DNA from: Nitrosospira lacus | Lineage (GTDB): Bacteria > Pseudomonadota > Gammaproteobacteria > Burkholderiales > Nitrosomonadaceae | Assembly: GCF_000355765.4 (NCBI RefSeq) | Contig: NZ_CP021106.3 | Coordinates: 3,195,137 to 3,259,136, forward strand | DNA: 64,000 nt | Direction: 5' to 3' | In this document: one piece after another, positions 29,046-47,946 of the stretch | Layout: each line of letters starts with the position of its first letter | Position numbering within the stretch: position 1 is the first letter of the stretch | Program-made: the position numbers and the translations under genes | Notes under the pieces: generated by a model | The model's input: only the letters and a program-made list of their open reading frames with translations | Databases searched by the model: none | Told to the model about the DNA's origin: nothing

Positions 29046-29830
29046 TATTTCATGAGCATGCGTGTAAAGAGCGCTGATATGAGAAGCGGGCGAAGCTCAG
29101 TGGAAGGAGAGATAAGAAATTGTGCATAAACACCCCTACGTTGCAAACGTTTGCATATTCATAATCAAGAGGGTGTCCTTCACATTGAAGTCTGAAATCC
29201 CCGTCATTACTGTGTTTCATTGTTAAAGCTAATACAAGTTACCACGTTTGTTACCACGGTTATACTCTTGATACCCTCTTTTTTAAACCTATCGGAAGGG
29301 GATCATAAACCGCCTCTTTTCTGGATACCAAACTGGATACTGCTAAAATATTAATTTTACCACCCCGGCGCATTGAGCGGATATACCTCATCGCTTTGGC
29401 AAAATAACCTCACAGTATCTTGTTCCTGCCTGGTTAAGGCTGCGTCTAAATTCGCTTCACTGTTCTTTTCTAGAACCTCTAGCAAGATCTCTCGAAGCGG
29501 CATGTGTACTGCCCCAGTTGAGAATTTTTTCCAGCATCCGAGATTCTTCGCGACTGCCGCTTGATAAATAGGACTGACACAATCAGCACGACGTACGCTA
29601 GCTTCACTTGCTCGCGTCTTGCCAACTCAGTCTCTAAAGCCTTCTGCTGGTCCGCCGTCCTGTGCCCTGCTGTTGGCAACCCTATCGTTAGTAGTTGAAG
29701 CGCGAACAAGTGGTGGCATTTTGCAAGCCTTGTGCCGATGAAGAATACCGAGCAGTGGGCGATGCTATCTCAAAGCAAACGAGTTTTCGCGCACGGTGAT
29801 GCCGTTTGCAAACCTCGGACTTCTGCTTAT
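29046..29830. other. Left edge of the accessory island, no clear genes
   Basis: 785 bases with only short, weak open frames (the longest, 29479-29709 minus, encodes a Lys/Glu-rich helix and a hydrophobic stretch but has no family). Direct repeats with 12-bp spacing occur at 29238-29258 and 29321-29340 (separate entry). The sequence is AT-rich and unlike the coding regions on both sides. This is the likely left boundary zone of the island, but no copy of the tRNA-Ser 3' end was found in it. Confidence 0.5.
29238..29340. repeat. Two pairs of short direct repeats, 12-bp period
   Basis: GTTACCACG occurs at 29238-29246 and 29250-29258; CTGGATAC occurs at 29321-29328 and 29333-29340. Both pairs have a 12-base start-to-start distance. 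Paired short direct repeats like these are typical of arm-type integrase sites at island ends; here they may mark the left end or the scar of an earlier element. Confidence 0.4.
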
Positions 29831-32359
29831 CTATCTGACATCTATTCTTGGGGCAATAGAAAGTCGAGCCCGCACTTCCTCATAGATCTGCGTGACCCCC
29901 GGCATTGCGAACGTTACAGCTAGCGCAAACGGAATAGGCTCATCGATCACCGGACCTTGGTCGGGTTCTCGTCGAACGGTCAATGTTACAACTTGATTTG
30001 TGCCTATCACTGGGGCCTGTGCTCCTTCCCAACGTCGTGAGTAGACTGTGCCACGGCGACCTTGATTTTGATCTGGTTGTGCCTTGGCCGCATCAACTCG
30101 CAAAGAAAACAACTCGTCCGACTCGGTGAGAGTGAGTCGAACGGCTCGGTAAGACTGTCGGCCTGGCAAAACTGGCGTAAACCAGGCCAGGGTTGCATGC
30201 AGTGCGTGTAGCTTTGCCTGTCCATTTATGCAAATAGGGATTGGAACCTGAACCGTGACCGCTTGTTCACGCGGTAATGTGCCGGTGGCCCAAAAGGTGG
30301 CTCGATCTTCAGTGCAAGCGACAGCCGCATCAGGATCAGCCAGGCCGAACCCGAGAAATCTCCTGATGTTATCCTTCTGACGAACATGCTGCCTATTGTC
30401 AGATGGTCCCAACACTTGTTTGATCAGCTGGGAGGCAGCCGGTGGCCAAGACGCGGTATGAACCAGTAAAGCCTTCAGCAGTGTCGCACGCAGGGCGTGG
30501 TTTAGCGATCTAAATGCGTCTCCGTATGCTGTTTCAAGCGCGTCGTGGATCTGGTGACAAGCGCGGGAGGCTAAGGCGGCAGCAGCACTTGTCCCATTGG
30601 TGAAGTGCTCAACGCTTTCAACCCCATTGCGTGGTGGTGCTGCAACTTTGAGTCCGTGAGCACGGGCTGGTCCGCTCGGCCTGACTGACAGTGTGGCCCC
30701 ACTCGCGACAAAGCTCACGTACTCTTTGGCCCCGGGCATCAGAATGTCGGGCTTTACGCTATTCGCGAAACCCGGACCAAGCGCGCTGGACGGATTGGGA
30801 GTCGTAAGGTTTGGGAAAGGATCAACGTTTACCCGCGCAAGTCGTCGGTCAGCCGGGGAAACAGCATCCACGTTGACAGCCCCAACCGTTACGCTGTTCA
30901 CCGATTCAGAGGGCGAAAGGAGCCGCCGCTCGGCGACCAAACGCCCTACTGCGAACATTGCTTCGCGCGCCCGTTGGGCATCCTCCGAACGTTCGAACTG
31001 ACCGAAGTTCGCAAAGCCCGGAATAGCAAACGGTGCCGTATGATTACCCGCACTTATAACAAAAAGAATCCCAAACCGGTACGAGAGGCGATCGATAAGT
31101 CGTGCCCAGGCCGACATTCGCCCTTGAAATGGCTTTCGCGAGTTGCCGAGTGAAATGTTGACAATCAAAATGTCTGGTGCCGAAGGCTCATCCCCCTCTC
31201 GCATTGCCGAGATGGCCTGGTAGACCATGTCAATGATCAGCCGATCGTCTGGGAACCTATCATTCGCACCAAGAATAGGTACTAAGTGAAGTCGCCGCCC
31301 AAGCCTTTGCTCCGCCTTATTCCGATCTCCGCACATAATCAGCGATGCCATTGCGGTGCCATGATGGCGATCGGTAACTTGAGCAAATGGCTCCAAGCCG
31401 AATTGATCATCAACGACCAATGCTCCCGCCAAAAGAGGATGTTGAGCAACTGGAACACCATCAAGCAAAGCTAGGATTGGGGAGCGATCAACGACCAACG
31501 GCTCTTCCGGTGCAGTATCCTCAGCTTCTCCAACTTCTATTGTCGTTGCTATGCTTTGTGGTCGGATGTACATTACTGGATCAAGGCCCACGATGCTTTC
31601 CGGCGACATGTTGATAATGCTTCGAACCATGACAACAGTTAATTCGGCCAAAATTGCGTGATACCCAATGTCGGCAATCCGGCAACGGCTAATGACATGT
31701 CCTCCAGCTGCTATGATTACGTTGCGCAAATCTGTTTCTGACTCATCAGCACGTGCCTCGCTTGCCCTATAAACAAGCTCGATTTCGAGCCGAATTCGCT
31801 CGGCATCAGCCCTGAATGCAATCTCTTCAGCGATAATATCTCGCTCCTCGGCTTGGACGCGATCTTGTGGCCCCCATGGCCGAATATTTCTCAATGTCGC
31901 GAATACATCGCGCCACGGAGCAAAACCTATTCCCAAGTCTTCCCCCTGGGTCCACCGAAACCATAGCGACGCGATATTGCTCAGAGCCTGAGCATCGGGT
32001 ACTAACAGATAGACGGTTGGCTCTCTGTCTTGTGCGTCCCCATCAAGCTCTTCCTCGTCAATTAATTCGAGGCCGGGGACGCGTCTGATGGAATTGATGA
32101 ATGACTGAACTGATCCCCGAACTTCGAAAACGAGCATACGCTCTGGCGCGAGTGCAGTCGGGTCACTTCGAAGTTCGATACCGCTCTGATCACGCTCTAG
32201 AATAGATGCCAGTCGATCGAATTTCGGACCGAATGCTGACATCTGATGATCGACACTAAATTGCTCAGGTCTTGGTGGGACTCTTCGGCGCCCGGGTGGT
32301 CTTTGTTGTGGTCCGCTGACGTTTAGCCAAAGGAGGGGTTTGTTTGGGTCGATCGACAT
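29831..32359 (-). CDS. Subtilisin-like (S8) serine peptidase paired with an AAA+ ATPase
   Basis: 842 aa. The S8 catalytic triad is visible: Asp300 in ILALLDGVP, His333 in DRHHGTAMAS and Ser591 in NGTSAAAA, with the oxyanion Asn in SAGNH (about 439). No signal peptide. About 280 residues precede the catalytic domain (with a charged helical stretch near 165-210), and about 220 follow it, probably a beta-rich domain. Intracellular, unlike secreted subtilases. Its ATG at 32359 lies 95 bases inside the preceding AAA+ gene and has a good AGAGG six bases upstream; a downstream ATG at 32242 without a ribosome site is the alternative. The ATPase probably activates it or delivers its substrate. Confidence 0.85.
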   Translation of the reverse strand: MSIDPNKPLLWLNVSGPQQRPPGRRRVPPRPEQFSVDHQMSAFGPKFDRLASILERDQSGIELRSDPTALAPERMLVFEVRGSVQSFINSIRRVPGLELIDEEELDGDAQDREPTVYLLVPDAQALSNIASLWFRWTQGEDLGIGFAPWRDVFATLRNIRPWGPQDRVQAEERDIIAEEIAFRADAERIRLEIELVYRASEARADESETDLRNVIIAAGGHVISRCRIADIGYHAILAELTVVMVRSIINMSPESIVGLDPVMYIRPQSIATTIEVGEAEDTAPEEPLVVDRSPILALLDGVPVAQHPLLAGALVVDDQFGLEPFAQVTDRHHGTAMASLIMCGDRNKAEQRLGRRLHLVPILGANDRFPDDRLIIDMVYQAISAMREGDEPSAPDILIVNISLGNSRKPFQGRMSAWARLIDRLSYRFGILFVISAGNHTAPFAIPGFANFGQFERSEDAQRAREAMFAVGRLVAERRLLSPSESVNSVTVGAVNVDAVSPADRRLARVNVDPFPNLTTPNPSSALGPGFANSVKPDILMPGAKEYVSFVASGATLSVRPSGPARAHGLKVAAPPRNGVESVEHFTNGTSAAAALASRACHQIHDALETAYGDAFRSLNHALRATLLKALLVHTASWPPAASQLIKQVLGPSDNRQHVRQKDNIRRFLGFGLADPDAAVACTEDRATFWATGTLPREQAVTVQVPIPICINGQAKLHALHATLAWFTPVLPGRQSYRAVRLTLTESDELFSLRVDAAKAQPDQNQGRRGTVYSRRWEGAQAPVIGTNQVVTLTVRREPDQGPVIDEPIPFALAVTFAMPGVTQIYEEVRARLSIAPRIDVR

Positions 32360-33335
32360 TCGTTACCTCTGGTTTCACACGGCTAGCCCACAAGTCGAGT
32401 TCAACTCGAATCGCAGAATCGATACTGACTTCACCAAGTCCGAGAATATGGCGTCGCCGCACGTTTTGGCAGAAATCGCGCGCTTCTGCATACGACATTG
32501 CTCCCAGCCAATCCGCCAATATCAATGCCGAAACCTTTGGCTTCTCCGACCAAGACTCGATAATCTTATGAAGGAACGCTGCGATCTCGTTTTCCTGAGG
32601 CGCTGGGAATGCCATTCTCAATTGAAATCGCCGCCAAACCGCACGATCCAAGAGTTCGGCATGGTTTGTCGCCGCTATAGTCAGCACATAACTTGGCAGT
32701 TGATCGATTTGCATCAACAAGAATGAGACGACCCGCTTGATTTCACCAGTCTCGTGTGTGTCGCCCCGCTCTTTACCAATCGAATCGAATTCGTCGAAGA
32801 ACAAGACGCAAGGCTGCGTTCGAACATAATCAAAAAGCTTGCGGAGGCGCGTATTGGTTTCACCAAGATAACTACCAATAAGCGCATCATAACGAACGAC
32901 GAAAAACGGCAGAGCAAGTGCCTCTGCAACAGCCTCGGCATAGGATGTTTTGCCGTTCCCAGGGGGGCCCGATAGAAGAACCTTGTGGCGTGGCTCGTAC
33001 CCGTGTGCCCGTAGCACGTCTGCTCGCATGTGCTCTTCAATGAGCTGCTTACCTTCAGCGCGAGCTGGAAGAGTCAAGACCAAATCTTCGAATCGAACCC
33101 GCGGCGTCAGTTCAAGAATAATATCGCGGCCGTTGCCCTGAATCGGTTGAGCATTGGTTAAGACTGGCGGTGTGACCGAGACGGCTTGAAGTGCCCGCTG
33201 AAGCCGATCCGCCAAGATGTGATGGCTCTTCGCACGCTCGTCCGCCATAAGCGCCTCGACCGTCGAGCGCAACATAGCCTTATCACCAACGGCGCCAGCG
33301 CGAACAAGTGAAAGGATGAGATCGCTCTTAGCCAT
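32265..33335 (-). CDS. AAA+ ATPase (FtsH/spastin-like module), partner of the S8 peptidase
   Basis: 356 aa. An N-terminal helical region (1-80) is followed by a classical AAA+ domain: Walker A GPPGNGKT (123-130), Walker B LFFDEFD (178-184), sensor-1 Asn in AATNH (about 224), arginine fingers in WRRF (about 235), and a helical lid. The C-terminus is basic (KRQRTTTKTTRAPKSPTKT), possibly a nucleic-acid or partner-contact tail, and is encoded in the segment shared with the peptidase gene. Transcribed first, followed by the overlapping peptidase, so the two are translationally linked. Confidence 0.88.
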   Translation of the reverse strand: MAKSDLILSLVRAGAVGDKAMLRSTVEALMADERAKSHHILADRLQRALQAVSVTPPVLTNAQPIQGNGRDIILELTPRVRFEDLVLTLPARAEGKQLIEEHMRADVLRAHGYEPRHKVLLSGPPGNGKTSYAEAVAEALALPFFVVRYDALIGSYLGETNTRLRKLFDYVRTQPCVLFFDEFDSIGKERGDTHETGEIKRVVSFLLMQIDQLPSYVLTIAATNHAELLDRAVWRRFQLRMAFPAPQENEIAAFLHKIIESWSEKPKVSALILADWLGAMSYAEARDFCQNVRRRHILGLGEVSIDSAIRVELDLWASRVKPEVTNVDRPKQTPPLAKRQRTTTKTTRAPKSPTKT

Positions 33336-33617: not shown

Positions 33618-34136
33618 TTAAGTATTGGATTTGTCTGGCGCAGGGACGAACGAAACCTGCACGTTTTGCTCTACGTGCGGCTTCTGGCTATTATCCTTGT
33701 CGAACAAGCCAAAGTGCTTGCATAGATGCTCTTGTGCTCTATTTTTATCCCACACCTTGATCTTGCGCACTCCTGCCGGATCAACCTCGATGGACGCGAT
33801 AGCCGCAGCAGTCGCATCATCAAGTTCATGGATTGCCTTTAGCGATCCATCGGCATTAAACAGCTTGCGTACATCAGAGAAGGCGAGCGCCGATACCTCG
33901 CGTATCACCTTCTCGGCGGTTACTTCACATCGCTTGGCAATTTCTTTCTGCTTTTCCTCGATAACCTTTTGCACCTTAACATTGCTTAACAGTCTAGAAG
34001 CCGCCGCTTCGGCGGAATTGCTGCGCGCGCCATACCCAGCGCGGATATACGCGGCAGTAGCATTAAGGTCAACACAATACTCTTCTGCGAATCTCCGCTG
34101 TTTTAGCGTAAGTTCGAGTTGATCTTTTTGGCTCAT
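33618..34136 (-). CDS. Phage terminase small subunit (TerS)
   Basis: 172 aa from the ATG at 34136 (GAGG 8 bases upstream). The N-terminal helix-turn-helix (LTLKQRRFAEEYCVDLNATAAYIRAGYGARSNSAEAAASRLLSN) is the Terminase_2 pattern used to bind packaging sites. The central helical part (VIEEKQKEIAKRCEVTAEKV) is for oligomerisation. No large terminase subunit, portal or capsid genes are near, so this is a satellite-type or remnant packaging gene. The 43-bp-period repeats begin 87 bases upstream. Confidence 0.85.
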   Translation of the reverse strand: MSQKDQLELTLKQRRFAEEYCVDLNATAAYIRAGYGARSNSAEAAASRLLSNVKVQKVIEEKQKEIAKRCEVTAEKVIREVSALAFSDVRKLFNADGSLKAIHELDDATAAAIASIEVDPAGVRKIKVWDKNRAQEHLCKHFGLFDKDNSQKPHVEQNVQVSFVPAPDKSNT

Positions 34137-34222
34137 TTCAAATACCTCATCAAGTACCTCTGGCGCTGCCCGCATTGGAACGGTTTCAATAAATCAGCAA
34201 TAGTATGGCTATATAGAAAGGT

Positions 34223-34790: not shown

Positions 34791-34794
34791 GTAT

Positions 34795-35016
34795 TTATTT
34801 CGCAGTCCGTTCGATTAGAGCGCGAATATCTTCCACCCTCCAGGCAGTAATACGACGACCTAAGGTTCGGACTGGCTGTGGATAATGCCCGGATTTGACG
34901 CCCGCCCACCAGGTTGACTTACTTACGGGGATTACAGCGGGGATAGGAGGTTTTGCTTTCGGATTACCGATAATTTGAGGCAGGCGCAAATAACCGGCTT
35001 CAGGTAGTTGGTACAT
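34795..35016 (-). CDS. alpA: AlpA-family regulator/excisionase-like protein
   Basis: 73 aa. The MerR-like winged-helix pattern of AlpA proteins is visible: YLRLPQIIG, then VSKSTWWAGVKSGHYPQPVRTLGRRITAWRVEDIRALI. AlpA controls integrase/excisionase expression in P4-like and PICI-type islands. It heads the alpA-HTH-terS gene order, which supports a phage-satellite identity. Confidence 0.82.
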   Translation of the reverse strand: MYQLPEAGYLRLPQIIGNPKAKPPIPAVIPVSKSTWWAGVKSGHYPQPVRTLGRRITAWRVEDIRALIERTAK

Positions 35017-35159: not shown

Positions 35160-35891
35160 TCACTGTTCTTCCGGCTTGCGTCCGGTTGGCGCCCATTCAG
35201 GGCGAATGAGGGTTGCGGCTTTCCAGGCAAGAGTTGATGAAAATCCATTTTGCTCAAACCATGCTGCGACTTTCCCATTGTCAGGATGTGTGTCACGCTC
35301 ATTTCGGTCGGCGTTTGCCCAAAATTTCTCCGCAGCCTGATTCATTCTTACCAATTTTTCAGACAAATAGCCGTGGTTCGTTAGTGTCATCTTTCCTGAC
35401 ACGCCGGTTTTTATCGGCATCGTAAATCCCTCAGCTACGGTCATGTGCAACTCTGATGGGATCATTGGTGAATAATTCAGCTCCCGGTCACCAGGGCGCT
35501 CTTCTAATCGAATATGGCTATCTGAACCATAGAAACGGGTAAACGCTTGCTCAAATTCATCTTTCCAGACGAATACGCCAGCCGGTAAAAGCGGTATCGA
35601 ATCGCGCCGCCAGACAAGATTATTCTCATCTTTAATCTTTTCACTCAACTGGAGCTTGTCGGACAAGGCTTGCAAACCGGCCGTAATACCGTCCCATTCT
35701 TTGGGCAACATGCTCGCCGGTACGCCATTGGAAGACAGATGATGGGCGGTAATACCCTTGAGTTTTTTCGGCAAATCGATATTCGCCAGCGATGCAGCCA
35801 CATTGATCGGAGACATCAGCCCGCCGGTAATAAAAGGTATTGCGCGAACCGGGATTACTTCCCGGCTATCAATAAGTAGGATGACATTCAT
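35160..35891 (-). CDS. Island protein of unknown function
   Basis: 243 aa. No domain recognised. The C-terminal part is the most family-like: MNQAAEKFWANADRNERDTHPDNGKVAAWFEQNGFSSTLAWKAATLIRP reads as a small helical domain followed by PEWAPTGRKPEEQ. It is upstream of alpA on the same strand with a 143-base gap, and divergent from the helicase operon. Confidence 0.6.
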   Translation of the reverse strand: MNVILLIDSREVIPVRAIPFITGGLMSPINVAASLANIDLPKKLKGITAHHLSSNGVPASMLPKEWDGITAGLQALSDKLQLSEKIKDENNLVWRRDSIPLLPAGVFVWKDEFEQAFTRFYGSDSHIRLEERPGDRELNYSPMIPSELHMTVAEGFTMPIKTGVSGKMTLTNHGYLSEKLVRMNQAAEKFWANADRNERDTHPDNGKVAAWFEQNGFSSTLAWKAATLIRPEWAPTGRKPEEQ

Positions 35892-39100: not shown

Positions 39101-39503
39101 TATCGATGCCAGCGGCAACGAAGCAGTGAATCCACTACAGCCTTATTTTCTGGTCTATATCCGCGATGATGGCGAAGTGCGCTACAACTTCACCAGCCCG
39201 AAACAGATACTCGAAATCTTCCGGGCGGTAGGTCAGGGCAAGACCGAGCCCTATGCCCAGCTATGCGAACTCTTCGATTCGAAAACCAAGAATGGAGAGG
39301 ACATGAGCCAATACAGCAGTCTGTTAGACCGTGCCGTTACCGCCATCGCCGCGCAATTCGAGCGAAAAAATGCCGGCAATCTTTTTTCCGGGCGTGGTGG
39401 CAAGCTCACCGACGCGAGTAAGCAAGTAAAATCTGCCGGGGATTTTGATCTCATCACTTGGCTGGTCATCAAGAGTACAGAGAAGGCACCCACCGATGCT
39501 TGA
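36177..39503 (+). CDS. PLD-nuclease/SNF2-like helicase (helicase subunit of a Hma-like defence operon)
   Basis: 1108 aa. An N-terminal PLD-type nuclease domain (about 20-190; LLHGKLYHI with His-x-Lys at 125-127, and ILGSSNFTRRGLG) is fused to a superfamily 2 helicase: motif I ADSVGLGKT (272-280), DESH box IVIDESHNFRN (364-367), motif III LLSATPVNNDL, then the second RecA domain ending IIQRFGRIDRIGS (motif VI). The final 200 residues are acidic and helical. A good AGGG precedes the ATG. First of three overlapping genes (8-base ATGCTTGA overlap with the methyltransferase). PLD plus helicase plus adenine methylase recalls DISARM as well, but drmA/drmB are absent. Confidence 0.88.
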   Translation: MTIKTIANSHGIRDNHGRGKVADFLVEKISDNSVLSVVSAYFTIYAYEALANQLDRVQTVRFLFGEPRFIATLDPEKTDKKFFKIEDEGLELSNRLQQKEIARRCANWIKAKVEIRSIRQANLLHGKLYHIHDGHREHAILGSSNFTRRGLGLSATPNIELNLIVDSDRDRADLKAWFDDVWADAKLVADVKDEVLRYLAQLYVDHAPEFIYFKTLFHVFERFLSEQADDARLFEQTAIVDTEIWKTLFDFQKDGVKGAIHKINSHNGCVLADSVGLGKTYSALAVIKYFELRNHRVLVLCPKKLRDNWTVYLAQNNSDLNPFLRDRFAYTVLSHTDLSRESGKVDGVDLATLNWGNFDLIVIDESHNFRNNVKGKRDEDGKVVRKSRYERLMEDIIQTGVKTKVMLLSATPVNNDLKDLRNQIYFVTEGHDAVFSQSLGIRSIKDTLSTAQRTFMEWAKRAGEKDAKELMDRLPAGFFTLLDELTIARSRKHIKRYYRASLAVIGQFPRRAKPQSIYADIDTKHRFPTYDRLNQEIGKYKLSLFKPSEYVLPQFKHLYTGESVIKNFSQEKREDFLIGMMKVNFLKRLESSVRSFAITMDRTVRKLEDLEARIGKFRELRDAKAQELQPELFVMEAEEDEELREAFEVGTLKYRLEHMDVDRWLADLTSDKQQLSMLAESADGVAPERDAKLAELKKIIEHKVRHPSINNLGDENRKIIVFCAFADTAAYLYEEIEGWARNRLGVHIALVSGGAKPNRTTFGQADFTQILTNFSPRAKQRAKMKSMPQDREIDILIATDCISEGQNLHDCDLLVNYDIHWNPVRIIQRFGRIDRIGSENKEIQLINFWPTPDLNKYINLKNRVEARMALVDIAATAEDNILEAEDLRELIQEDLRYRDKQLLRLKDEVLDLEDFNESVALNEFTLDDFRMELASYIEANREKLEQAPFGLYAVVPPHTDHQTIKPGAIYCLKQRIDASGNEAVNPLQPYFLVYIRDDGEVRYNFTSPKQILEIFRAVGQGKTEPYAQLCELFDSKTKNGEDMSQYSSLLDRAVTAIAAQFERKNAGNLFSGRGGKLTDASKQVKSAGDFDLITWLVIKSTEKAPTDA

Positions 39504-42500
39504 GTTTAATCCACAAAAGCTGGGCGCGCTGCGTACCGCACTGACGAATTTCCAGAATCGCCCACTAAGCGAGGCTAGTTCAGAGCTACTATCATTGCTT
39601 GGATACAAGAGCGACAAGACCGCCGACTTCGGCTCCAAGCCAGAGCAATTCATTGCGGCTGTAGAAGATGCTGCGCACAGCACTTTCAACCGTGACAGAG
39701 CGCATGTTTCCCGATGGAAGCAGTGCGCCCTTTTGTTCCAGCTTACTAACGATGAAATCCCTTCGCTTGCACTTGGGCAGCAAGTCTTGGCCACCGATAC
39801 CAGGCTGGCGCGGAGCCTCATCGAATCCTTTGTTTTTCTGGCCATCGAATTGCAGGGGGAGAACTGGTCTCGTACCAACCTTGCTGCTATCGCAAGGGAA
39901 CTGAATCGTCACTTTCCCATGCCCGCCATCGTGATCTTTAAATACTGCGATCTAGTTTCTCTGGTAGTGATCGACCGACGCGCCAACAAGCGCGACACTA
40001 GCCGTGACGTTATCGATAACCGCATCACTGTCATTAAGGACGTGCGGAGTAAAAATCCTCACCGCGCCCATTTGGACATCCTGGCCGGGCTGGCACTGGA
40101 AAATCTAGGCGAAAAAAAACGCCGCCCGACCAACTTCCGTGAGCTGTACGACGCCTGGATCGTCGCACTCTCTACACAAGCGCTCAATAAGCGTTTTTAT
40201 ACCGAGCTTTCTCGGTGGTATTTTTGGGCAGTGAAACAGGTTGCCTTTCCACCGGGCGGTGGCGAAGACGAATCCAAGCGCAATTCTGTTGCCGTCATCC
40301 GGTTGCTCACGCGTCTGATCTTCGTTTGGTTCATCAAGGAAAAAGGGTTGATCCAGGAAGATCTGTTTGAAGCTGCACAACTCAAAACGTTGCTTAAATC
40401 CGACCCTTCGGCAAACGGTGAAGACAGCACGTATTACCTCGCTATTTTACAAAACCTGTTCTTCGCCAGTCTTAATGTTGAAATGGGCTTAGACCGTAAA
40501 TGGGCAGCGGACGGCGGAGGCATGAAAAGCGACAGGCTGATTCATTCGCTCTATCGTCACAAGGAAATGTTTCGTGACCCGGACCAAGTTCTCAAGGAAT
40601 ACTTCTCGAAAATCCCCTTCTTAAATGGGGGCCTGTTCGAGTGTCTGGATCGAGAACTCACCGAACGTGACTTTCAACGCAACCCGGAACTGAAATCCAT
40701 AGCTGTCAAAGAAGGTAATGGTTACGTGCTGCGTGTGGATGGCTTTTCCCGCCGCAAGGATGCGCAGCCTGTCGTTCCCAACAAGTTATTTTTTGGTGGT
40801 GAAATGCAGGCCGATCTCGGTGTCGACCTTGGCACCAAGGGCAAGCTTATCGACGTTTATGGACTGATTGATATTTTTAGACGCTACAAATTCACTGTAG
40901 ATGAAAACACCCCAGCGGAAGAGGAAGTCGCCCTTGATCCCGAACTGCTCGGTAAGGTTTTCGAGAACCTGCTCGCGAGCTACAACGAGGACACACAAGC
41001 TACCGCCCGCAAATTATCCGGCTCGTTCTACACGCCACGCGAGGTGGTGGACTACATGGTAGATGAAGTGCTTATCGCGTACTTTGATCGAGCTTTGCAT
41101 ACACCTCAGACTAAGAGCGTTGGCAAACGGAAAGCCATGTTATCCCACGCCGTCAACGAATTTCTTGACCTCGGCAACCAACCCGGTGAGCTTGCATTGA
41201 ACATCACTCCCGCGAAAGCGGGAATCCAAAAAACTGAAGCTGATGAGTTGGTTTCAACTTGTCGCGGGAGTAATGATATTGAGGTGCGTCTGCGCAGCTT
41301 ACTTTCCTACGTAGACACCCCGCACGAATTCAGCTTGGTGGAAGTGAAATCGATCATTGCAGCCATCGAGCAACTGAAAGTTCTTGACCCCGCCTGCGGT
41401 TCCGGCGCATTCCCGATGGGAGTGCTGCAAAAACTTGTGCATATACTTAGGAAGCTGGACCCCAACAACGAACTGTGGAAAACGCAAAACCGCACCCCGT
41501 TGGCGGCGCAACTCGCGGAAGCAAAAAAAATCCGCGACCTGTCTTTACACGCAGCCAAGGTGGAGGAAGCGGAAAGCGCGCTCACAAAATTCGACCGTGA
41601 CTTCGCCAACGCCAAACACGCCGATTACACCCGCAAACTCTATCTTATTGAAAAATGCATCCACGGCGTAGACATTCAACCTATCGCCGTGCAGATCGCT
41701 AAGCTGCGTTTTTTCATCGCGCTGGTGGTGAGTCAGGAAATGGATAAATCAAGAGATAACTGGGGTATCACTGCGTTACCTAACTTGGAAACCAAGATTG
41801 TCGCTGCCGATAGCCTCACTCCAATTCGTGATGTAAAAAGTAACTTGACCGAGAACTACCAGCTTGGTCATGACGCCATCAAAGCGATTGAAGCGGGCCT
41901 GCACGATGCCAGCGAAAATTATTTCTCTGCACGAACCACCAAAACCAAACGCAAGTTCCGCGAGATCATCCAAAACTTGCGTGACCAGCTAGCCAGCGAA
42001 CTGGAGCAAAGCGGATTCTCTACAGCAAAAGCCCAGCAACTGGTGCATTGGAACCCCTTCGATCAGAATACTGCCGCTGATTTTTTCGATCCGGAGTGGA
42101 TGTTCCAGTTGGGTAACGGCTTTGACGTGGTGATTGGTAATCCACCCTATGTGCGGCAGGAAGAGATCAAGCACCTCAAAGACGGCCTCAAGGCACATTA
42201 TGATTGTTACACCGGCACTGCCGATCTCTACGTTTATTTCTATGAACGTTCCATCAAGCTACTCAAACCTCACGGCGCGTTTGCCTTCATCACCTCCAAC
42301 AAATGGTATCGCGCCAAATACGGCGAAAAGCTGCGCGACTGGATGAACTGCAACACCAAGCTTAGGCGCATCATCGACTTCGGCGATGAGACCGTATTCA
42401 CGGCGATTGCCTACCCCACTATTGTCATCGCAACGCGCCGCGCACAGACGGTCAAGACACCGGGGCAAGATGAGGATGTGCTGGCGCTCAATTGGACGCA

Positions 42501-43635
42501 GGAGCACCCGGTCGAACAGTTTCCCCAAGTATTCGCCGAAACGGCCTTCCCTGTACCACAGGCGGAACTATCCAAGAACGGTTGGCAATTGGAGCCACCC
42601 GTAAAGCGTCGCCTTCTGGAACGTATCCGCACCGCAGGCAAGCCGCTGGGAGAATACGTCCGGGGCCGTTTCTATTACGGCATCAAGACCGGCTTCAACG
42701 ACGCCTTCGTCATCAACGGTGCGAGTCGCGCCCAGCTGATCGCCAAAGACCCGAAATCAGCGGAGATCATCAAGCCCTTCCTGCGAGGGCGCGATGTGAA
42801 GCGGTGGCAGGTTGAGTTTTCTGACCAATACCTCATCAAGATTGAGTCATCGGAAAACAAAGGCCATCCGTGGTCAGGTAAATCGAAAAAGGAAGCGGAG
42901 GAGGTTTTTGCCACAACATATCCCGCAATTTACGAGCACTTCCAATCGCTACGAGATGTTGAGTTGGATAAACCCGATGCTCGTGGTTGTCGCAACAAGT
43001 TCGAGCAACTCCAGCGCAGAGATGATCAAGGCAAGTTTTTTTGGGAACTACGATCATGTATCTATTGGCAGGAGTTTGAACAACCGAAGATTGTGGTGCC
43101 GGCCATTGCAGAAGCACCGAGTTTCGCGCCTGATTTTAAGGGGCATTACAGCAACAATAAGAGCACGATATTTCTTCCGCCAAAAATCAATTTTGCGCTC
43201 GGCGCTTTAAATTCCAGTATCAATGCGTGGCTTGCCACACAGGTTTGTTCAACCAAGCAAGGTGGGTTCCTCGACTTCGAGCCAAGATACTCCGGGCAGT
43301 TGATTATCCCATCGGCTGACATCGCTCAGATTACGCTGGTGGAAGCTGCCGTTTCTGCCGTCCTTGTAACCCGCGATGTCCACTTGGAGCAACTCATCAG
43401 CGGCCTCATCTATGAACTCTTCTTCCCCGAAGACCTGCACCGCGTCGGCATTCGCCTGTTTGACGCTTGCGAAAAGGCAGGCATCGCCAACCTCGCCACT
43501 CTCCAGGGTCAGGTACTGGTCGATGAAGCCAACAATCTGGCCGCCCGCATCTTCGTTACCAACAACCCCATCTACGCCATGCTCTTCGACCTGCAAGCCT
43601 TGGACGTGGTGCGCATCATTGAGGGACGAGAATGA
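39496..43635 (+). CDS. Large Eco57I-type adenine-specific DNA methyltransferase
   Basis: 1379 aa from the ATG at 39496 (the frame opens earlier, but this start overlaps the helicase stop and starts conserved sequence). Motif I LDPACGSGAFPMG is at about 630-642 and motif IV NPPYVRQEEI at about 882, typical of gamma-class N6-adenine methylases of the PglX/type IIG group. The N-terminal 500 residues are helical (FKYCDLVSLVVIDRRANKRD and later); the C-terminal 350 probably form the target-recognition part. No obvious nuclease motif. Residues about 569-594 (ITPAKAGIQ and on) come from an inserted palindromic repeat, read in frame. ATGA overlap with the next gene. Confidence 0.88.
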   Translation: MLEFNPQKLGALRTALTNFQNRPLSEASSELLSLLGYKSDKTADFGSKPEQFIAAVEDAAHSTFNRDRAHVSRWKQCALLFQLTNDEIPSLALGQQVLATDTRLARSLIESFVFLAIELQGENWSRTNLAAIARELNRHFPMPAIVIFKYCDLVSLVVIDRRANKRDTSRDVIDNRITVIKDVRSKNPHRAHLDILAGLALENLGEKKRRPTNFRELYDAWIVALSTQALNKRFYTELSRWYFWAVKQVAFPPGGGEDESKRNSVAVIRLLTRLIFVWFIKEKGLIQEDLFEAAQLKTLLKSDPSANGEDSTYYLAILQNLFFASLNVEMGLDRKWAADGGGMKSDRLIHSLYRHKEMFRDPDQVLKEYFSKIPFLNGGLFECLDRELTERDFQRNPELKSIAVKEGNGYVLRVDGFSRRKDAQPVVPNKLFFGGEMQADLGVDLGTKGKLIDVYGLIDIFRRYKFTVDENTPAEEEVALDPELLGKVFENLLASYNEDTQATARKLSGSFYTPREVVDYMVDEVLIAYFDRALHTPQTKSVGKRKAMLSHAVNEFLDLGNQPGELALNITPAKAGIQKTEADELVSTCRGSNDIEVRLRSLLSYVDTPHEFSLVEVKSIIAAIEQLKVLDPACGSGAFPMGVLQKLVHILRKLDPNNELWKTQNRTPLAAQLAEAKKIRDLSLHAAKVEEAESALTKFDRDFANAKHADYTRKLYLIEKCIHGVDIQPIAVQIAKLRFFIALVVSQEMDKSRDNWGITALPNLETKIVAADSLTPIRDVKSNLTENYQLGHDAIKAIEAGLHDASENYFSARTTKTKRKFREIIQNLRDQLASELEQSGFSTAKAQQLVHWNPFDQNTAADFFDPEWMFQLGNGFDVVIGNPPYVRQEEIKHLKDGLKAHYDCYTGTADLYVYFYERSIKLLKPHGAFAFITSNKWYRAKYGEKLRDWMNCNTKLRRIIDFGDETVFTAIAYPTIVIATRRAQTVKTPGQDEDVLALNWTQEHPVEQFPQVFAETAFPVPQAELSKNGWQLEPPVKRRLLERIRTAGKPLGEYVRGRFYYGIKTGFNDAFVINGASRAQLIAKDPKSAEIIKPFLRGRDVKRWQVEFSDQYLIKIESSENKGHPWSGKSKKEAEEVFATTYPAIYEHFQSLRDVELDKPDARGCRNKFEQLQRRDDQGKFFWELRSCIYWQEFEQPKIVVPAIAEAPSFAPDFKGHYSNNKSTIFLPPKINFALGALNSSINAWLATQVCSTKQGGFLDFEPRYSGQLIIPSADIAQITLVEAAVSAVLVTRDVHLEQLISGLIYELFFPEDLHRVGIRLFDACEKAGIANLATLQGQVLVDEANNLAARIFVTNNPIYAMLFDLQALDVVRIIEGRE
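41202..41276. repeat. Palindromic PAKAGIQ-type repeat inserted in the methyltransferase gene
   Basis: Starts ATCACTCCCGCGAAAGCGGG and ends CGCGGGAGTAATGAT, an inverted pair (ATcACTCCCGCG / ATtACTCCCGCG). The CCCGCGAAAGCGGGAATCC core is the widespread intergenic palindromic repeat whose translation gives the well-known PAKAGIQ peptide. Here it is translated in frame (ITPAKAGIQKTEADE and on) in the linker just before methylase motif I, with no stop codon. ATTGA lies near both sides (41196-41200 and 41278-41282). Confidence 0.75.
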
Positions 43636-45566
43636 CAGCGCACCTTCAGTCGCTGCGCATCAAGCGTCTGACACTCACCGACTTCCGTGCCTTCCCCGGT
43701 CCAGCGCCGACGGATTTCGATCTCGACGGCAAGAACCTGCTGGTCTATGGCGAGAACGGGGCGGGTAAGTCGTCCATCTTTCATGCACTAAACGGTTTCT
43801 TTTCACTCAAACCCAAGAAACCGCTACGTGAACATAAGAACGTATTCTCTGGCCAACCGGATAACAATTGTAGGGTTAGCGTGGAATTTACCGATGGCGC
43901 GGCGGCAGTAGATTGGACGGTTTCCAAGCACCCGGGTGCCGTTGATTTGTCAGTTCCAGTAGATAACTGGTACAAATATTTTTACCGCAATGCCGATTCG
44001 CGTGTTGTTACAACTGCATTACGGCGCACCTGTCTGGATTATCGATCGCTGCTGGATACCAACTACAAACACCATGACGATGCGATTAACCTATTCGACA
44101 TTGCGGTTGAGCATTTGCTGCGGGATTTCCCGGTTGTTGTTGAGGGTGGAAAGAATGCGAGCATCGGTGAGCTCTGGGCCAAGGTGTTAAAGGCCAAACC
44201 CAGCCAACACACATCCGCCGCCATTACACGCATGAACCAAGCATGCCTGGAATTCAATACCGCTTTCCGTAACGCCATTCCTGCACTGCTTCCCCACATC
44301 AACGCACTGATGCGAGAACTGGGCTGGGACGATGTGGAACTCAAGGGGTTTCGGACACCAGGACTTACCTATAACAACGCGCGGCTGAAACAGCATCGGG
44401 CCATCGAGGGCCAGGTGCTGACACCGGAATTGACCTTCCGCGACCATCCATTGCCTGCTCCGCAGATTTTCCTGAACGAGGCTAGGCTTTCAGCACTCGG
44501 GCTGGCGATCTATCTTGCCGGGCGCCTCGCTTGCACCCCGACAGCCACGACAGACGCGCTGAAGCTTCTGGTGTTGGACGATGTGCTGATCGGCCTGGAT
44601 CACTCCAACCGATTGCCGGTTCTTGATGTGCTACGCAAGCATTTTTTTGATTGGCAGATCGTCTTGCTCACCCATGACCGAGTTTGGTTCGAGATGGCGC
44701 GCTTTCATATTGGCAACAGCGGGCAATGGAAATGCCTGGAGGTCTTTGAAGGCGAGGATGCGACGCGAGGAATCCCAGCACCGACAGTTCGTTCTGCTGG
44801 TGACAAGGCGGCGAGGGTCAGCCTCGATCAGGCTCGTACCTTTCTCGCTGACCATCACATTTCGGCAGCTGCCAATTACACGCGCGCAGCCTTCGAACTC
44901 ACGTTGAAGTCTTTCTGTGAGCGGTTTGGTGTGCCAGTGACATTCAAGACTGACCCTCGCCATTTGGATACAGACAAGCTGCTTTGCGCTGTGGAAGTCT
45001 GGTTCAGGACTCATGCGGGGAAGGGGTTTTTGGCAGGTGTTATTGAGAGGGTTAAGCTATTCCGCAAGGTTGTGCTCAACCCCCACTCCCATGCTTCGCC
45101 TCCCGACATTGCGCGCGCCGAAGTGAAAGGTGCAATAGCGGCGGTTGAGAATCTACTTGCCATTTTGGATCCCGGTGGCGTGGAGGGCGACCCGCTCCAG
45201 GCTGCACAAAAACTGATTGCGAAAACATCTCCTTCGATTGAAGATCTGCACGCTGCGCTAGGATTTCTGCGCGCGGCGTTCCTTTTCAGTCTTCGCCGAT
45301 TCGGTGACCGCAAGCATTTGCATATCACCTTCACGGAGCAGGCAATCAACGGTTTGACTCTGTGGAAAGCTGTTATAGCTGACCAATCGAGACTATTCCC
45401 CTCACCGCATGACGGCGTTCCGACTCAGGTCGAGGCCGAGCGCCGCTGGCTGATCTCGCCTGTCAGCGCCGCCGATCTAGCGGCCCTGACCCACGCGGAC
45501 CTCGTTCGACTTACCGGATTACTGGCGCCGGCCGGTTCGTTGGAGTTAATACTCGATTCACTTTAA
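43632..45566 (+). CDS. RecF/SMC-like AAA ATPase (third gene of the Hma-like operon)
   Basis: 644 aa. Walker A GENGAGKSS (40-48) follows the RecF/SMC-type start IKRLTLTDFRAFPG. The ABC-ATPase C-part has a Walker B LLVLDDVLIGLD near 314 and the H-loop LLTHDRVWF; between them lies a helical insertion (about 90-290) without long coiled coil. After about residue 395 there is an extra C-terminal domain (ADHHISAAANYTRAAFELTLKSF) of unknown function. The start ATG overlaps the methyltransferase stop (ATGA). Probably hydrolyses ATP to sense or clamp DNA ends; its exact role in this system is inferred. Confidence 0.85.
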   Translation: MTAHLQSLRIKRLTLTDFRAFPGPAPTDFDLDGKNLLVYGENGAGKSSIFHALNGFFSLKPKKPLREHKNVFSGQPDNNCRVSVEFTDGAAAVDWTVSKHPGAVDLSVPVDNWYKYFYRNADSRVVTTALRRTCLDYRSLLDTNYKHHDDAINLFDIAVEHLLRDFPVVVEGGKNASIGELWAKVLKAKPSQHTSAAITRMNQACLEFNTAFRNAIPALLPHINALMRELGWDDVELKGFRTPGLTYNNARLKQHRAIEGQVLTPELTFRDHPLPAPQIFLNEARLSALGLAIYLAGRLACTPTATTDALKLLVLDDVLIGLDHSNRLPVLDVLRKHFFDWQIVLLTHDRVWFEMARFHIGNSGQWKCLEVFEGEDATRGIPAPTVRSAGDKAARVSLDQARTFLADHHISAAANYTRAAFELTLKSFCERFGVPVTFKTDPRHLDTDKLLCAVEVWFRTHAGKGFLAGVIERVKLFRKVVLNPHSHASPPDIARAEVKGAIAAVENLLAILDPGGVEGDPLQAAQKLIAKTSPSIEDLHAALGFLRAAFLFSLRRFGDRKHLHITFTEQAINGLTLWKAVIADQSRLFPSPHDGVPTQVEAERRWLISPVSAADLAALTHADLVRLTGLLAPAGSLELILDSL

Positions 45567-45783
45567 GGTACTTCGAGAGCAACGTGCAAAATGATCTCGC
45601 ACGTCCAAATGCACCCCTTGACGGCAAAGAAACCGCTCAACAAACTTTTGCACACTACGGCCACCTTGATGATGAAGATCTAAAAACGGAAATTACCGTT
45701 GAAGGGAATTTGGACAGTGGCGGCGCAGGAAGAAGTGTAACTCTGTCGCCCGTCTCGCCGCTTGTTTGCTGTGCGGCAAGCTA

Positions 45784-46026
45784 TCAAGCCGCTTTGGTTT
45801 TTAGTGGGATAACCATTGCCCCACGCTGGGCGGCAGCAGGTTGTGCCCCCACCATTGGAACAGTTTGACCCGCCATCGAGCCGCGCGCCACCCTCATAGG
45901 CCCGCGCAACTTTTCGTGCGCATGGTCAAGGGCAAGCTCCACCACGTCGCGGGCAGTGCCGTTGTCGTGCGCAAGAGTGGAAAATGAACTGCGCCAGCCG
46001 TGGGGCGAATGTTTCCCATTAAGAGC
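45784..46026 (-). pseudogene. Decayed integrase C-terminus
   Basis: Translating the minus strand just past the stop of the intact integrase, in another frame, gives KHSPHGWRSSFSTLAHDN followed by DVVELALDHAHEK, the catalytic HxxR region and following helix of a tyrosine recombinase. It then reads on into unrelated residues to a TGA at 45784-45786. No start and no N-terminal part remain. It is the relic of a second, different integrase at this site. Confidence 0.72.
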
Positions 46027-47251
46027 CTTGACCGTACAATGGGATCACCTTCGCACCAGCTTCTATTGAATCCAAATAATCCGCCCACTGTTGCATCATT
46101 CGCTTGCGCTCGGGCAGATACTCAGCGCGATTATAGGCACCCCTCACTTCGTTGCGTTCGCAATGGGCAAGCTGACGCTCAATCACATCCGGATTGAAGC
46201 CGGTCTCGTTGAGGATTGTAGAGGCTACAGCACGGAAACCGTGCCCTGTCATTTTTCCCTTGTAGCCGAGGCGATAAAGCGCAAACAGCATGGTGTTATT
46301 GCTGATGGGCTTGTCCTGGTTGCGGCCGGGGAATACGAAGCGGCTGCCACCTGATATTTCCTTGAGTTCCGCCAGCATCGTGAGTGCCTGCCCTGACAGC
46401 GGGACAACATGTTCCGCTTTCATCTTCATGCGCCCGGCTGGGATGATCCACAAGGCATTATTCAGATCGAATTCCCCCCACTCCGCGCCTATTAGTTCAT
46501 TGGTGCGTACAAAGGTTTGCGCAAGCAGTTGCAAAGCAAGACGGGTTTGCTTGTCGCCGGTTTCATCATACTTGGCGATCGCACGTAACAACTCTGGCAA
46601 TTCCTCGGGACGGACAGCGGCTTGATGCTGTTTCTTGTGTGGGGTCAGCGCACCGCGCAAGTCGGTGGATAGATCGTGGGTACAGCGCCCGGTGGCAATG
46701 CCATAGCGAAACACCTGCCCGCATACTTGCAGGACACGATGGGCTAGATCGTATGCGCCACGGGCTTCTATCTTGCGAACGGTTTGGAGTAGTTCAGGCG
46801 CTTGAATCTCACCGATGGGGCGCTTACCCAGTGTTGGGAAGATATTGTTTTCCAAACGCCGTCTTACGTCGCTTGCATGGTGTGGCACCCAGGTATGCAG
46901 TTGCTTGTTGTACCACTCCATTGCCACCGCCTCGAAGGAATTTACATTGGCGAGCTTCTTACGCAGGTTAGTAGCTTTACGTTCGGCGGAGGGGTCGAGG
47001 TCAGCATCCAGCACTTTACGCTGCTCATCGCGCTTAATGCGGGCCTTCTTGAGGGAAATTTGCGGGTAAGAACCAAAGGACAGAGACTTCTCCTTGCTCG
47101 CAATCCAATAGCGCAAACGCCAGAATTTGCGGCCATCCTCGTAAATCCATAACAATAAGCCGCCCCCATCATGTAGCTTATGAATTTTCTTTCCCTGACT
47201 GGTGGCATTCCGACAATCGGCGTCACTCAGCAAATTTAATTTCGATGCCAT
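46019..47251 (-). CDS. int: P4-type tyrosine integrase of the island
   Basis: 410 aa. An N-terminal Arm-DNA-binding domain (DUF4102 type; residues 20-90, KLHDGGGLLLWIYEDGRKFWRLRY) precedes a core-binding domain and the catalytic domain with Arg249 (VRTNEL), Lys278, His337-Arg340 (GHGFR), His363 and Tyr373 (GAYNRAEY). All catalytic residues are present, so it looks functional. It integrates and excises mobile islands by site-specific recombination. It lies between a free Arm domain and the integrase relic, 600 bases from the 3' end of tRNA-Ser. Confidence 0.93.
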   Translation of the reverse strand: MASKLNLLSDADCRNATSQGKKIHKLHDGGGLLLWIYEDGRKFWRLRYWIASKEKSLSFGSYPQISLKKARIKRDEQRKVLDADLDPSAERKATNLRKKLANVNSFEAVAMEWYNKQLHTWVPHHASDVRRRLENNIFPTLGKRPIGEIQAPELLQTVRKIEARGAYDLAHRVLQVCGQVFRYGIATGRCTHDLSTDLRGALTPHKKQHQAAVRPEELPELLRAIAKYDETGDKQTRLALQLLAQTFVRTNELIGAEWGEFDLNNALWIIPAGRMKMKAEHVVPLSGQALTMLAELKEISGGSRFVFPGRNQDKPISNNTMLFALYRLGYKGKMTGHGFRAVASTILNETGFNPDVIERQLAHCERNEVRGAYNRAEYLPERKRMMQQWADYLDSIEAGAKVIPLYGQGS

Positions 47252-47253
47252 AT

Positions 47254-47682
47254 CTACCCCACCGTAGCCTGGAGAAAAGCCCTTAACGCTTCCGTTTGAG
47301 ATCGGGTCAGGGTTACAACGCGGATTGATGTCTCGATAGTCAACTCGCCATCGTCAGATAAGATGAGCCTGAATTGATTTCGATGACTTGAGGCCTTTGC
47401 AGCATGCCTCCTTGCATCCTTACGCAGCTCGGAGGGATTTAATCCATTCTTGAGCTGAGCCCTGATTTGATCGCGCTCATTGCGAGCATCATCAATTGTG
47501 ACGGAAGGATATACTCCCAAGGAGAGGCTATTTTCCTTGCCTGCCTGGCGATAACGGTATCGCCAGTATTTTCTGCCATCAGAGTAAACCCAAAGATACA
47601 GACCGTCCCCATCAGCTAGCTTGAGAATACGCTGCTGATCACATCGGGCACTTGCGCATATCTGATCACTTAGGACGCCCAT
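47254..47682 (-). CDS. Free-standing Arm-DNA-binding domain protein
   Basis: 142 aa. Residues 1-85 are the integrase Arm domain (RILKLADGDGLYLWVYSDGRKYWRYRYRQAGKENSLSLGVYPSVTI), clearly related to but distinct from that of the neighbouring integrase. The second half has no catalytic domain and ends FLQATVG. AAGGA precedes the ATG at good spacing; its stop is 2 bases before the integrase start, so the two are co-transcribed. It may be a truncated integrase or an accessory DNA-binding protein (for example a directionality helper). Confidence 0.75.
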   Translation of the reverse strand: MGVLSDQICASARCDQQRILKLADGDGLYLWVYSDGRKYWRYRYRQAGKENSLSLGVYPSVTIDDARNERDQIRAQLKNGLNPSELRKDARRHAAKASSHRNQFRLILSDDGELTIETSIRVVTLTRSQTEALRAFLQATVG

Positions 47683-47691
47683 CGATCAATC

Positions 47692-47739
47692 CTTGGTAAA
47701 TTTTTCCAAACTTGGTAACACACCAAGTAATTTACCAAG
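47692..47739. repeat. CTTGGTAA repeats near the right end of the island
   Basis: CTTGGTAA at 47692-47699 and 47711-47718, and inverted as TTACCAAG at 47732-47739, with ACCAAGTAA between. Short repeated sites beside the integrase and the tRNA 3' end resemble arm-type integrase sites; they also overlap the promoter zone of the Arm-domain gene. Confidence 0.5.
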
Positions 47740-47853
47740 AAAATGTTACGGATGCAACTGGACGTTACTACACCACCCTGGACAATAACTACGCATAACT
47801 ACCTGTATTTACCAGTGTTTCTGGACTATATTGGATGGGCTTGGATGCTAGAT

Positions 47854-47946
47854 TGGCGGAGAGGGTGGGATTCGAACCCACGTGCCAGGTTACCCTGACC
47901 ATCTGATTTCGAGTCAGCGCCGTTATGGCCACTTCGGTACCTCTCC
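47854..47946 (-). tRNA. serU-like: tRNA-Ser (anticodon CGA)
   Basis: 93 nt. The 7-bp acceptor stem GGAGAGG/CCTCTCC, anticodon stem CTGACT/AATCAG-type with CGA in the loop, a long variable arm and the T-loop GTTCGAATC are all visible. The 3' end includes an encoded CCA (47854-47856 on the minus strand). It decodes UCG. The 3' end points into the island, next to the integrase, the classic integration arrangement. Confidence 0.95.

What the first reader, a model, noticed from the sequence alone, without database searches (positions are those of the whole stretch)
29200..47946. PICI-like phage-satellite island in an ammonia oxidiser, loaded with two defence-like modules
Integrase next to the 3' end of tRNA-Ser, alpA, an HTH protein, a lone terminase small subunit and iteron-like repeats form a satellite backbone without any structural genes. 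Two protein systems with defence-like architecture fill the rest. Seen: the gene content and order. Known: PICIs and P4-like satellites carry int, alpA and terS and often defence cargo. Inference: that this island is such a satellite and that it acts against phage in Nitrosospira-like hosts, where satellites are, to my knowledge, hardly described.
Basis: partly seen in the sequence, partly recalled or inferred. Interest (0 to 1): 0.75.

Follow-up and report, generated by a model that had tools for sequence, protein, structure and literature searches.

The report
TerS-carrying phage satellite in Nitrosospira
This 18.7-kb island in a soil ammonia-oxidising bacterium looks like a phage satellite, a genetic parasite that borrows another virus's particles, and it carries two sets of antiviral-type genes; related elements occur in several relatives and a likely virus partner has been found.

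Summary
Window 29162-47873 is an island at the 3' end of tRNA-Ser: int, a 243-aa gene, AlpA, a winged-helix protein with four iterons, lone TerS, no structural gene found, plus IetAS and a PLD-SNF2/N6-methylase/SMC-ATPase operon. The flank shared with G012 and G015 stops at its left end; the left att copy is decayed (12/20). The site is a hotspot (Mza, Druantia, Cas9 in relatives). New support for the satellite reading: (1) TerS relatives (57-65%) sit in compact int-x-alpA-replication-terS elements in Nitrosospira; 0 of 16 places read had TerL, portal or coat in the stretch held. (2) The int-alpA-initiator backbone recurs in four short viral contigs with capsid, protease and portal genes. (3) The nearest phage TerS (65%) precedes a P22/Sf6-type TerL and portal; that TerL groups with extra copies in Nitrosospira. 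Unexpectedly, all 23 genus genomes carry a conserved P22/Sf6-like packaging cassette, a possible resident helper. Induction, packaging and anti-phage activity are untested; the decayed att leaves mobility open. A new variant of a known kind: PICI-like, with an O/RepA-like initiator where PICIs have a primase.

The parts
47854..47946 (-). tRNA-Ser(CGA); its 3' end (47854-47873) is the att core on the int side
   Evidence: ARAGORN; Rfam; 20/20 and 19/20 copies of this core bound other inserts in G012 and G015
29162..29181 (.). decayed left att copy, 12 of 20 identical to the tRNA-Ser 3' end; AGAGGGTG occurs in the window only here (29168) and at 47860, both strands searched
   Evidence: most favourable of ten length/offset choices, a 16-mer: 41 of 6572 null windows as good; for the 20-mer 126 of 6572; the flank shared with G012 and G015 stops at 29159
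29169..29276 (.). conserved element left end with GTTACCACG repeats (candidate integrase arm sites)
   Evidence: 72-73% identical to left ends of inserts in G006 and G021
29831..32359 (-). ietS, subtilase of the IetAS defence pair
   Evidence: PADLOC IetS E 1.3e-277; Peptidase_S8
32265..33335 (-). ietA, AAA ATPase of IetAS
   Evidence: PADLOC IetA E 1.1e-146
33618..34175 (-). terS, lone terminase small subunit
   Evidence: Terminase_2 E 4e-36; satellite terS median omega 0.166, n=14, 47 of 91 pairs usable; 65% to phage TerS in L205
34226..34359 (.). four iterons like CGGCGGGCGTGTCATA (34226, 34269, 34312, 34344), candidate replication origin at the 3' end of the initiator gene
   Evidence: similar arrays in L084, L086, L087, L144, L149; not found in L156, L088, L089, L091
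34338..34790 (-). 150-aa winged-helix protein, putative iteron-binding replication initiator
   Evidence: PHROG replication families in relatives; RepA/DnaD-like top matches, none significant
34795..35016 (-). AlpA-like regulator/excisionase
35160..35891 (-). 243-aa protein of unknown function in the gene position between int and alpA
   Evidence: no Pfam/PHROG hit; C-terminal 83 aa 61% identical to the gene between int and alpA in L088
36177..39503 (+). PLD (HKD) nuclease-SNF2 helicase fusion
   Evidence: Pfam PLDc_2, SNF2, Helicase_C; PADLOC 'HKD+Snf2' E 6.7e-128
39445..43635 (+). Eco57I-type N6-adenine methylase with TaqI_C specificity domain
   Evidence: Pfam; PADLOC type IIG E 2.3e-106
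43632..45566 (+). SMC/Rad50-like ABC ATPase
   Evidence: Pfam SMC_N; same three-gene order in L331 and L332
46019..47251 (-). tyrosine integrase
   Evidence: Pfam; 83-88% to integrases of other Nitrosospira elements at tRNA-Ser genes
47254..47682 (-). standalone integrase-arm-like protein beside int
   Evidence: PHROG/NCBIfam; 56% homologues beside int in L084 and G020

Best explanation
The island is a PICI-like phage satellite with a large anti-phage cargo. Integrase plus AlpA would excise it from tRNA-Ser; the 150-aa winged-helix protein would bind the iterons at the end of its own gene and start replication; on infection or induction of a P22/Sf6-type phage, the satellite TerS would pair with that phage's TerL and direct headful packaging of satellite DNA into helper particles. 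Between transfers the cargo (IetAS, and an R-M-like nuclease-helicase/methylase/ATPase system) would protect host and satellite from competing phages. Shown here: gene content, ends, site variability, the genus-wide element family, purifying selection, and the phage TerS-TerL match. Inferred: excision, initiator function, TerS-TerL pairing, packaging and defence activity.
For: Besides the window, 16 terS places in the genus were read with up to about 10 kb either side: 15 of 16 have a replication gene before terS, 10 of 16 an integrase or integrase fragment on the same stretch; none lies with a phrog_2 TerL match, and none has a match to the L205 TerL or portal, the core coat, or the L286 capsid, protease or portal (52 stretches, hits only in the four viral contigs). 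TerS is under purifying selection (median omega 0.166). In the TerS tree 14 satellite sequences form a group (support 0.63; 0.97 without the window) with phage L205 as sister (0.67). L205 has TerS, Terminase_3 TerL (6.5e-43) and P22 portal (1.2e-112) in order; its TerL groups with extra copies in G010 and G021 (0.90; with the G005 one 0.34). The backbone int-alpA-initiator occurs in L285-L288, 4 of 4 with capsid, protease and portal. Iteron arrays recur in 5 of 9 relatives. At the same tRNA-Ser, elements with an 83-87% identical integrase in G011, G020 and G021 carry swapped replication and end modules; an 88% integrase marks a second own-genome element at tRNA-Ser(TGA).
Against: The left att copy is decayed; the core's other genome matches (2-3 mismatches) lie elsewhere, one of them at the second element's own tRNA-Ser, so excision may no longer work. 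No primase in this island. No second copy of this TerS, as a matching prophage would have, in this genome. The initiator assignment rests on weak hits of relatives, not of the window protein itself; the AlphaFold model is poor (pLDDT 49.7); L156, 77% identical in that protein, shows no such iteron array. No pac-like conserved stretch inside terS (275 of 1000 permutations as strong). 18.7 kb is large against the 9.5-kb average quoted for PICIs (PMC10803314). Six of 16 terS places showed no integrase; several are fragmentary.
Confidence: 0.7

Rival explanations
1. A former satellite, now fixed: the att copy has decayed and the island is kept as a chromosomal defence island; int, alpA and terS are leftovers.
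For: Left att only 12/20 identical; the right-end arm-like repeats differ from the left-end ones; two large defence-type operons make the island 18.7 kb; G006 keeps the same left end with an Mza defence system and no match to this integrase.
Against: int, alpA, initiator and terS are intact open frames, and int, initiator and terS families are under purifying selection; left ends in G006 and G021 are imperfect too.
Confidence: 0.2
2. An ordinary tRNA-borne integrative island that is not phage-related; the TerS was picked up by chance from a prophage.
For: Tyrosine integrase, AlpA and variable cargo are common on non-satellite islands (recalled); own-genome L084 and G011 L156 have int-alpA-initiator and related 314-316-aa proteins (the L084 one ParB-like) but no terS seen.
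Against: TerS recurs after the replication block in many separate elements with several replication types; the same backbone carries capsid genes in viral contigs.
Confidence: 0.07
3. A degraded prophage that has lost its head, tail and lysis genes.
For: TerS is a phage gene with 65% identity to a P22-like phage TerS.
Against: None of the 12 main ORFs matches another structural, tail or lysis family; many elements show the same reduced, ordered layout, which decay would not repeat.
Confidence: 0.03

Closest known systems
Gram-negative PICIs (Fillol-Salom 2018, PMC6092414; passages seen)
   Same: int, AlpA, replication block with origin, sometimes a lone terS, helper particles, accessory and phage-resistance genes
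   Different: No primase in this island; initiator of O/RepA/DnaD-like type with iterons; 18.7 kb; cargo on both sides of the backbone; no helper shown
PICMI (PMC10803314; passages seen)
   Same: int, often a variable gene between int and alpA, AlpA, replication gene, defence cargo; Nitrosospira relatives with a DUF3987 protein (L143, L148) are very close in layout
   Different: PICMIs are modelled on int-alpA-primase next to fis, and the word 'terminase' does not occur in that paper's text; this island has terS and no primase
Capsid-forming PICIs (capsid making and 14-kb size from PMC10803314 passages; gene order recalled)
   Same: Backbone int-alpA-winged-helix protein is shared with L285-L288, which carry capsid, protease and portal
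   Different: No match to those capsid, protease or portal genes in the window island or the Nitrosospira relatives searched
IetAS defence (PADLOC models; NCBIfam IteA/IteS)
   Same: Near full-length PADLOC match of both proteins, adjacent genes
   Different: Far below NCBIfam equivalog cut-offs (90 vs 900 and 220 vs 510 bits), so a divergent branch
CxC-ABC-ATPase-centric / Pbe-type and BREX-related type-2 systems (PMC10853773; PMC12839542; passages seen)
   Same: HKD nuclease fused to an SF2/SNF2 helicase plus DNA methylase plus ATPase
   Different: ATPase is SMC/Rad50-like by Pfam rather than DUF499; no DndE or DUF3780 hit among the three proteins, though not every small ORF beside them was scanned; methylase is of the type IIG Eco57I kind

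Membership tests
PICI (Gram-negative) | integrase and specific att site | tested here: met
   int next to tRNA-Ser 3' end; ends located by comparison with G012/G015, though the left att copy is decayed
PICI (Gram-negative) | AlpA (or MerR) regulator | tested here: met
   12 of 13 family members match Phage_AlpA at E <= 0.05; the window member itself does not, but is 77% identical to one that does
PICI (Gram-negative) | pri-rep replication module with ori | tested here: inconclusive
   no primase in the island; initiator-like protein with iterons instead; other Nitrosospira elements have primase-type genes
PICI (Gram-negative) | no structural or lysis genes; optional lone terS | tested here: met
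PICI (Gram-negative) | helper-induced excision, replication and packaging | not testable with these tools
   needs culture and phage
PICMI | int, alpA and primase (DUF3987/DUF5906), fis site | tested here: not met
   no primase, tRNA-Ser site
cf-PICI | own capsid genes | tested here: not met
   none in the window; present in L285-L288
IetAS | S8 peptidase plus AAA ATPase pair | tested here: met
   anti-phage activity not tested
Hma | helicase, m5C methylase, ATPase (PMC8565338, passages) | tested here: not met
   methylase is Eco57I N6 type; the helicase's best PADLOC model is C3a139 (6.7e-128), HmaA only 4.6e-26

The most novel reading that the evidence does not exclude
The satellites of Nitrosospira may parasitise not only infecting phages but the genus's own vertically kept P22/Sf6-like packaging cassette (TerL, portal and TerS in 23 of 23 genomes, under strong purifying selection): the satellite TerS would replace the cassette's Sf6-type TerS and retarget a resident, possibly gene-transfer-agent-like particle to satellite DNA. 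That would be a satellite whose helper is a host-domesticated particle.
Probability: 0.2. Interest if true: 0.87.

Novelty: new variant of a known kind. Interest (0 to 1): 0.64.

Why it matters
Ammonia-oxidising bacteria drive soil nitrification, yet I found little on how satellites and defence genes move among them: no paper in the held library has both 'phage satellite' and 'Nitrosospira', and the single hit for 'phage satellites' plus 'ammonia-oxidizing' is an antibiotics review (listing only). Soil Nitrosospira viruses and proviruses are described (PMC11849493, passages; the word 'satellite' does not occur there). Here are a family of satellites, a TerS-TerL phage lineage as helper candidate, and a tRNA hotspot that collects Mza, Druantia, Cas9 and IetAS. 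The satellite-helper pairing becomes testable with cultured Nitrosospira. The swap of replication blocks before a constant TerS is a natural experiment on what a TerS-bearing satellite needs.

Tried and rejected
Exact direct repeat of the tRNA end: none in the window; in the whole genome the 20-nt core has only the tRNA itself exactly, and four places with 2-3 mismatches, one of them the tRNA-Ser(TGA) of the second element. Empty site in a relative: none found; G012 and G015 are filled with other inserts; five genomes (G003, G007, G008, G009, G013) have only 4.4-4.9 kb between the flanks, with no match to any island protein (two of the five were read gene by gene). The cl12 protein (numbered cl9 from then on) as a second TerS family: rejected for lack of any Pfam or PHROG terminase match. 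Pac signal inside terS by synonymous conservation: not significant (275/1000). AlphaFold of the initiator: low confidence; Foldseek top hits are replication initiators and DnaD but none reaches E 0.001; the best solved-structure profile hit is a replication initiator at E 0.23. phrog_2 as prophage marker: it hits every genome because of the core cassette; the hits near E 1e-4 were not followed. Own-genome Mu-like prophage as TerS donor: rejected, its TerS is Mu Gp27 type. p243 function: unresolved.

Limits. Element counts rest on mechanical ORF calling, so short genes can be missed, and the small gene called cl7 in four elements was not tested by a family search. Three weak TerS fragment matches (G020 contig 17, G017 contig 65, G001 contig 45) were not read. 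L285-L288 are short contigs (11-17 kb): only nine L286 ORFs and one L288 ORF were scanned with Pfam, so a cut prophage is not excluded there. In one search many pairs were skipped as saturated (TerL 150 of 210, satellite TerS 44 of 91, initiator 27 of 36). Rz/Rz1 and scaffold names are my reading of the sequences, not from a call.
Full report
What is there. Between tRNA-Ser(CGA) (47854-47946) and about 29162 lies an 18.7-kb island. On the minus strand, from the tRNA inwards: a standalone integrase-arm-like protein, a full tyrosine integrase, then (beyond a plus-strand operon) a 243-aa protein, an AlpA-like protein, a 150-aa winged-helix protein, a terminase small subunit, IetA and IetS. The plus-strand operon between int and the 243-aa gene encodes a PLD-SNF2 fusion, an Eco57I-type methylase and an SMC-like ATPase.

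Ends. The right flank is shared by 22 of 22 genus relatives; in 17 of 22 the match begins within six bases of the tRNA 3' end, in the other five (G004, G010, G011, G020, G021) earlier, and three of these (G011, G020, G021) have a closely related integrase there. The left flank is shared with the two nearest relatives, G012 and G015, up to 29159. In G015 a copy of the tRNA end (19 of 20) follows directly, 30.8 kb from its tRNA; in G012 an exact 20-bp copy bounds a different insert. In the window the copy is decayed (12/20), but AGAGGGTG occurs in the window only at 29168 and 47860, and the next 108 bases resemble the left ends of inserts in G021 and G006. So both flanks are the same in three genomes and the contents differ: a real insertion, with a weak left att. 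A second own-genome element with an 88% identical integrase sits at tRNA-Ser(TGA) (L084).

The site is a hotspot. Where both flanks lie on one contig, the tRNA-to-left-flank distance runs from 4.4 (G007) to about 70 kb (G022). PADLOC finds five Mza proteins in G006 (clustered with a five-gene set in G021), Cas9 and Cas1 in G010, and DruE with a weaker DruF in G020 at this site.

The satellite family. TerS homologues occur in 12 of 23 genus genomes at E 0.001 (own included), 9 of 23 with a strong match. Sixteen places outside the window were read: 15 of 16 have a replication gene before terS (the exception is a TerS fragment, L151), 10 of 16 an integrase or fragment; 6 of 16 an AlpA-cluster gene that matches Phage_AlpA, one more by cluster only (G021), and four another small gene (cl7) in that position that was not tested. 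Replication proteins are of several kinds: DUF927-Toprim, DUF3987, DUF3631, PriCT_2/AAA_25, or the window-type initiator (L144, L149). No TerL, portal or coat match was found within these stretches. One weak TerS relative, G005 contig 38 (37%), is different: it sits in a P22-like cassette beside TerL. TerS, int and initiator families are under purifying selection (median omega 0.166, 0.075, 0.142).

Replication block. The window 150-aa protein has no family hit alone. Of 13 aligned members, 7 match phrog_678 (replication initiation O-like, best 3.9e-5), and every family hit by any member is a replication initiator or DnaD-like loader. Four iterons lie at the 3' end of the gene with spacings 43, 43 and 32. 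Of nine relatives looked at, five have at least three like units there: L084 (43, 43), L086 (42, 43), L144 (32, 42, 44), L149 (44, 42), L087 (74, 44); L156, L088, L089 and L091 do not at that cut-off. This supports an iteron-binding initiator with its origin; it does not prove it. Homologues occur in 27 of 300 genomes of the order, own included.

Helper evidence. Among viral contigs, the closest TerS (65%) is in L205, followed by Terminase_3 TerL and a P22 portal. Its TerL is 75-83% identical to a TerL present in 23 of 23 genus genomes and groups with extra copies of G010 and G021 (support 0.90) and, weakly, G005 (0.34). In the TerS tree 14 satellite sequences group (0.63; 0.97 without the window) with L205 as sister (0.67), and one divergent sequence, L152, lies outside. 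Against named phages the best TerS identity is 39% over 82% of the length. Thus a Nitrosospira P22-like phage carrying this TerS type is the best helper candidate. This genome has no other copy of this TerS.

Core cassette. The universal TerL resembles a PDB 'gene 2 protein' (E 2.5e-62). Upstream is a TerS of another family, matching PDB 'gene 1 protein'/'terminase small subunit' entries (E 8.5e-17); that both sets are from phage Sf6 is recalled. Downstream are portal, a beta-helix protein in many, a scaffold-like gene and a major capsid protein (E 3.4e-20). TerL, portal and this TerS are found in 23 of 23 genomes and coat in 21 of 23; the two without coat, G002 and G013, are cut by contig ends. 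L205 and the G005 contig-38 copy lack this TerS; L205 has a Terminase_2 one, and the G005 copy has the 37% relative. Flanking genes are shared in many genomes (17 and 12 of 27 loci for two of them). Omega is 0.057 for coat and 0.056 for TerL, though most TerL pairs were saturated and skipped. It may be a domesticated prophage or gene transfer agent and a possible resident helper.

Backbone in viral contigs. Four contigs with a related initiator (51-53%) carry AlpA and int (before the initiator in three; [quoted passage not shown] That is like capsid-forming satellites, but the contigs are short.

Cargo. IetAS is a known defence pair; this one is divergent from NCBIfam models. The three-gene operon is rare: 2 of 348 other order genomes have the ATPase at E 1e-30, both with all three genes in the same order (PLD-SNF2 80-82%, methylase 55-56%, ATPase 62-64%, cut short in L332) within about 1.5 kb of an integrase, one also near an AlpA-like gene. 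The nearest described kinds are HKD-helicase/methylase/ATPase systems (passages). I could not establish that this exact set is undescribed.

Conclusion. A PICI-like satellite of a new variant, probability about 0.7 for the mechanism as stated; the family-level satellite claim is firmer than the claim that this copy is still mobile.

Noticed in passing
own genome C1:1941368-1942618 and surroundings (L170:9131-18519); homologues in L301-L323: A conserved P22/Sf6-like packaging cassette (TerS, TerL, portal in 23 of 23 Nitrosospira genomes) under strong purifying selection, with no integrase of the window family nearby in the own genome: possible domesticated prophage or podovirus-like gene transfer agent.
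   Followed up: partly
L084:10879-15671 (own genome C1:3098001-3118000) and L156:12997-17697: Second own-genome element at tRNA-Ser(TGA) with int 88%, AlpA and initiator about 80% identical to the window island and a ParB-like protein; a similar one in G011 at tRNA-Ser(CGA); no terS seen in either.
   Followed up: partly
window 47254-47682: Standalone copy of an integrase arm-binding domain beside int, also in L084 and G020 (about 56%); could regulate excision.
   Followed up: no
L087:9811-10428, L088:8627-9289, L091:10074-10754, L041:1371-2051, L155:15893-16555: Unknown ~220-aa family (IKNPPVVFAKQANI-like motif) occupies the terS position in related elements; no Pfam or PHROG match for the four scanned.
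   Followed up: partly
L168:11332-13421 (own genome C1:2298001-2318000): Mu-like prophage genes: Gp27-type TerS and Terminase_6N TerL.
   Followed up: partly
L331:7694-19527, L332:1771-13270: PLD-SNF2/methylase/SMC operon near an integrase in two other genomes of the order, one also near an AlpA-like gene: a travelling cassette.
   Followed up: partly
window 7658-7764: TPP riboswitch (Rfam RF00059, 62.3 bits).
   Followed up: no
window 59001-61000: G+C rises to about 67%; only two other 1-kb blocks exceed 60%.
   Followed up: no
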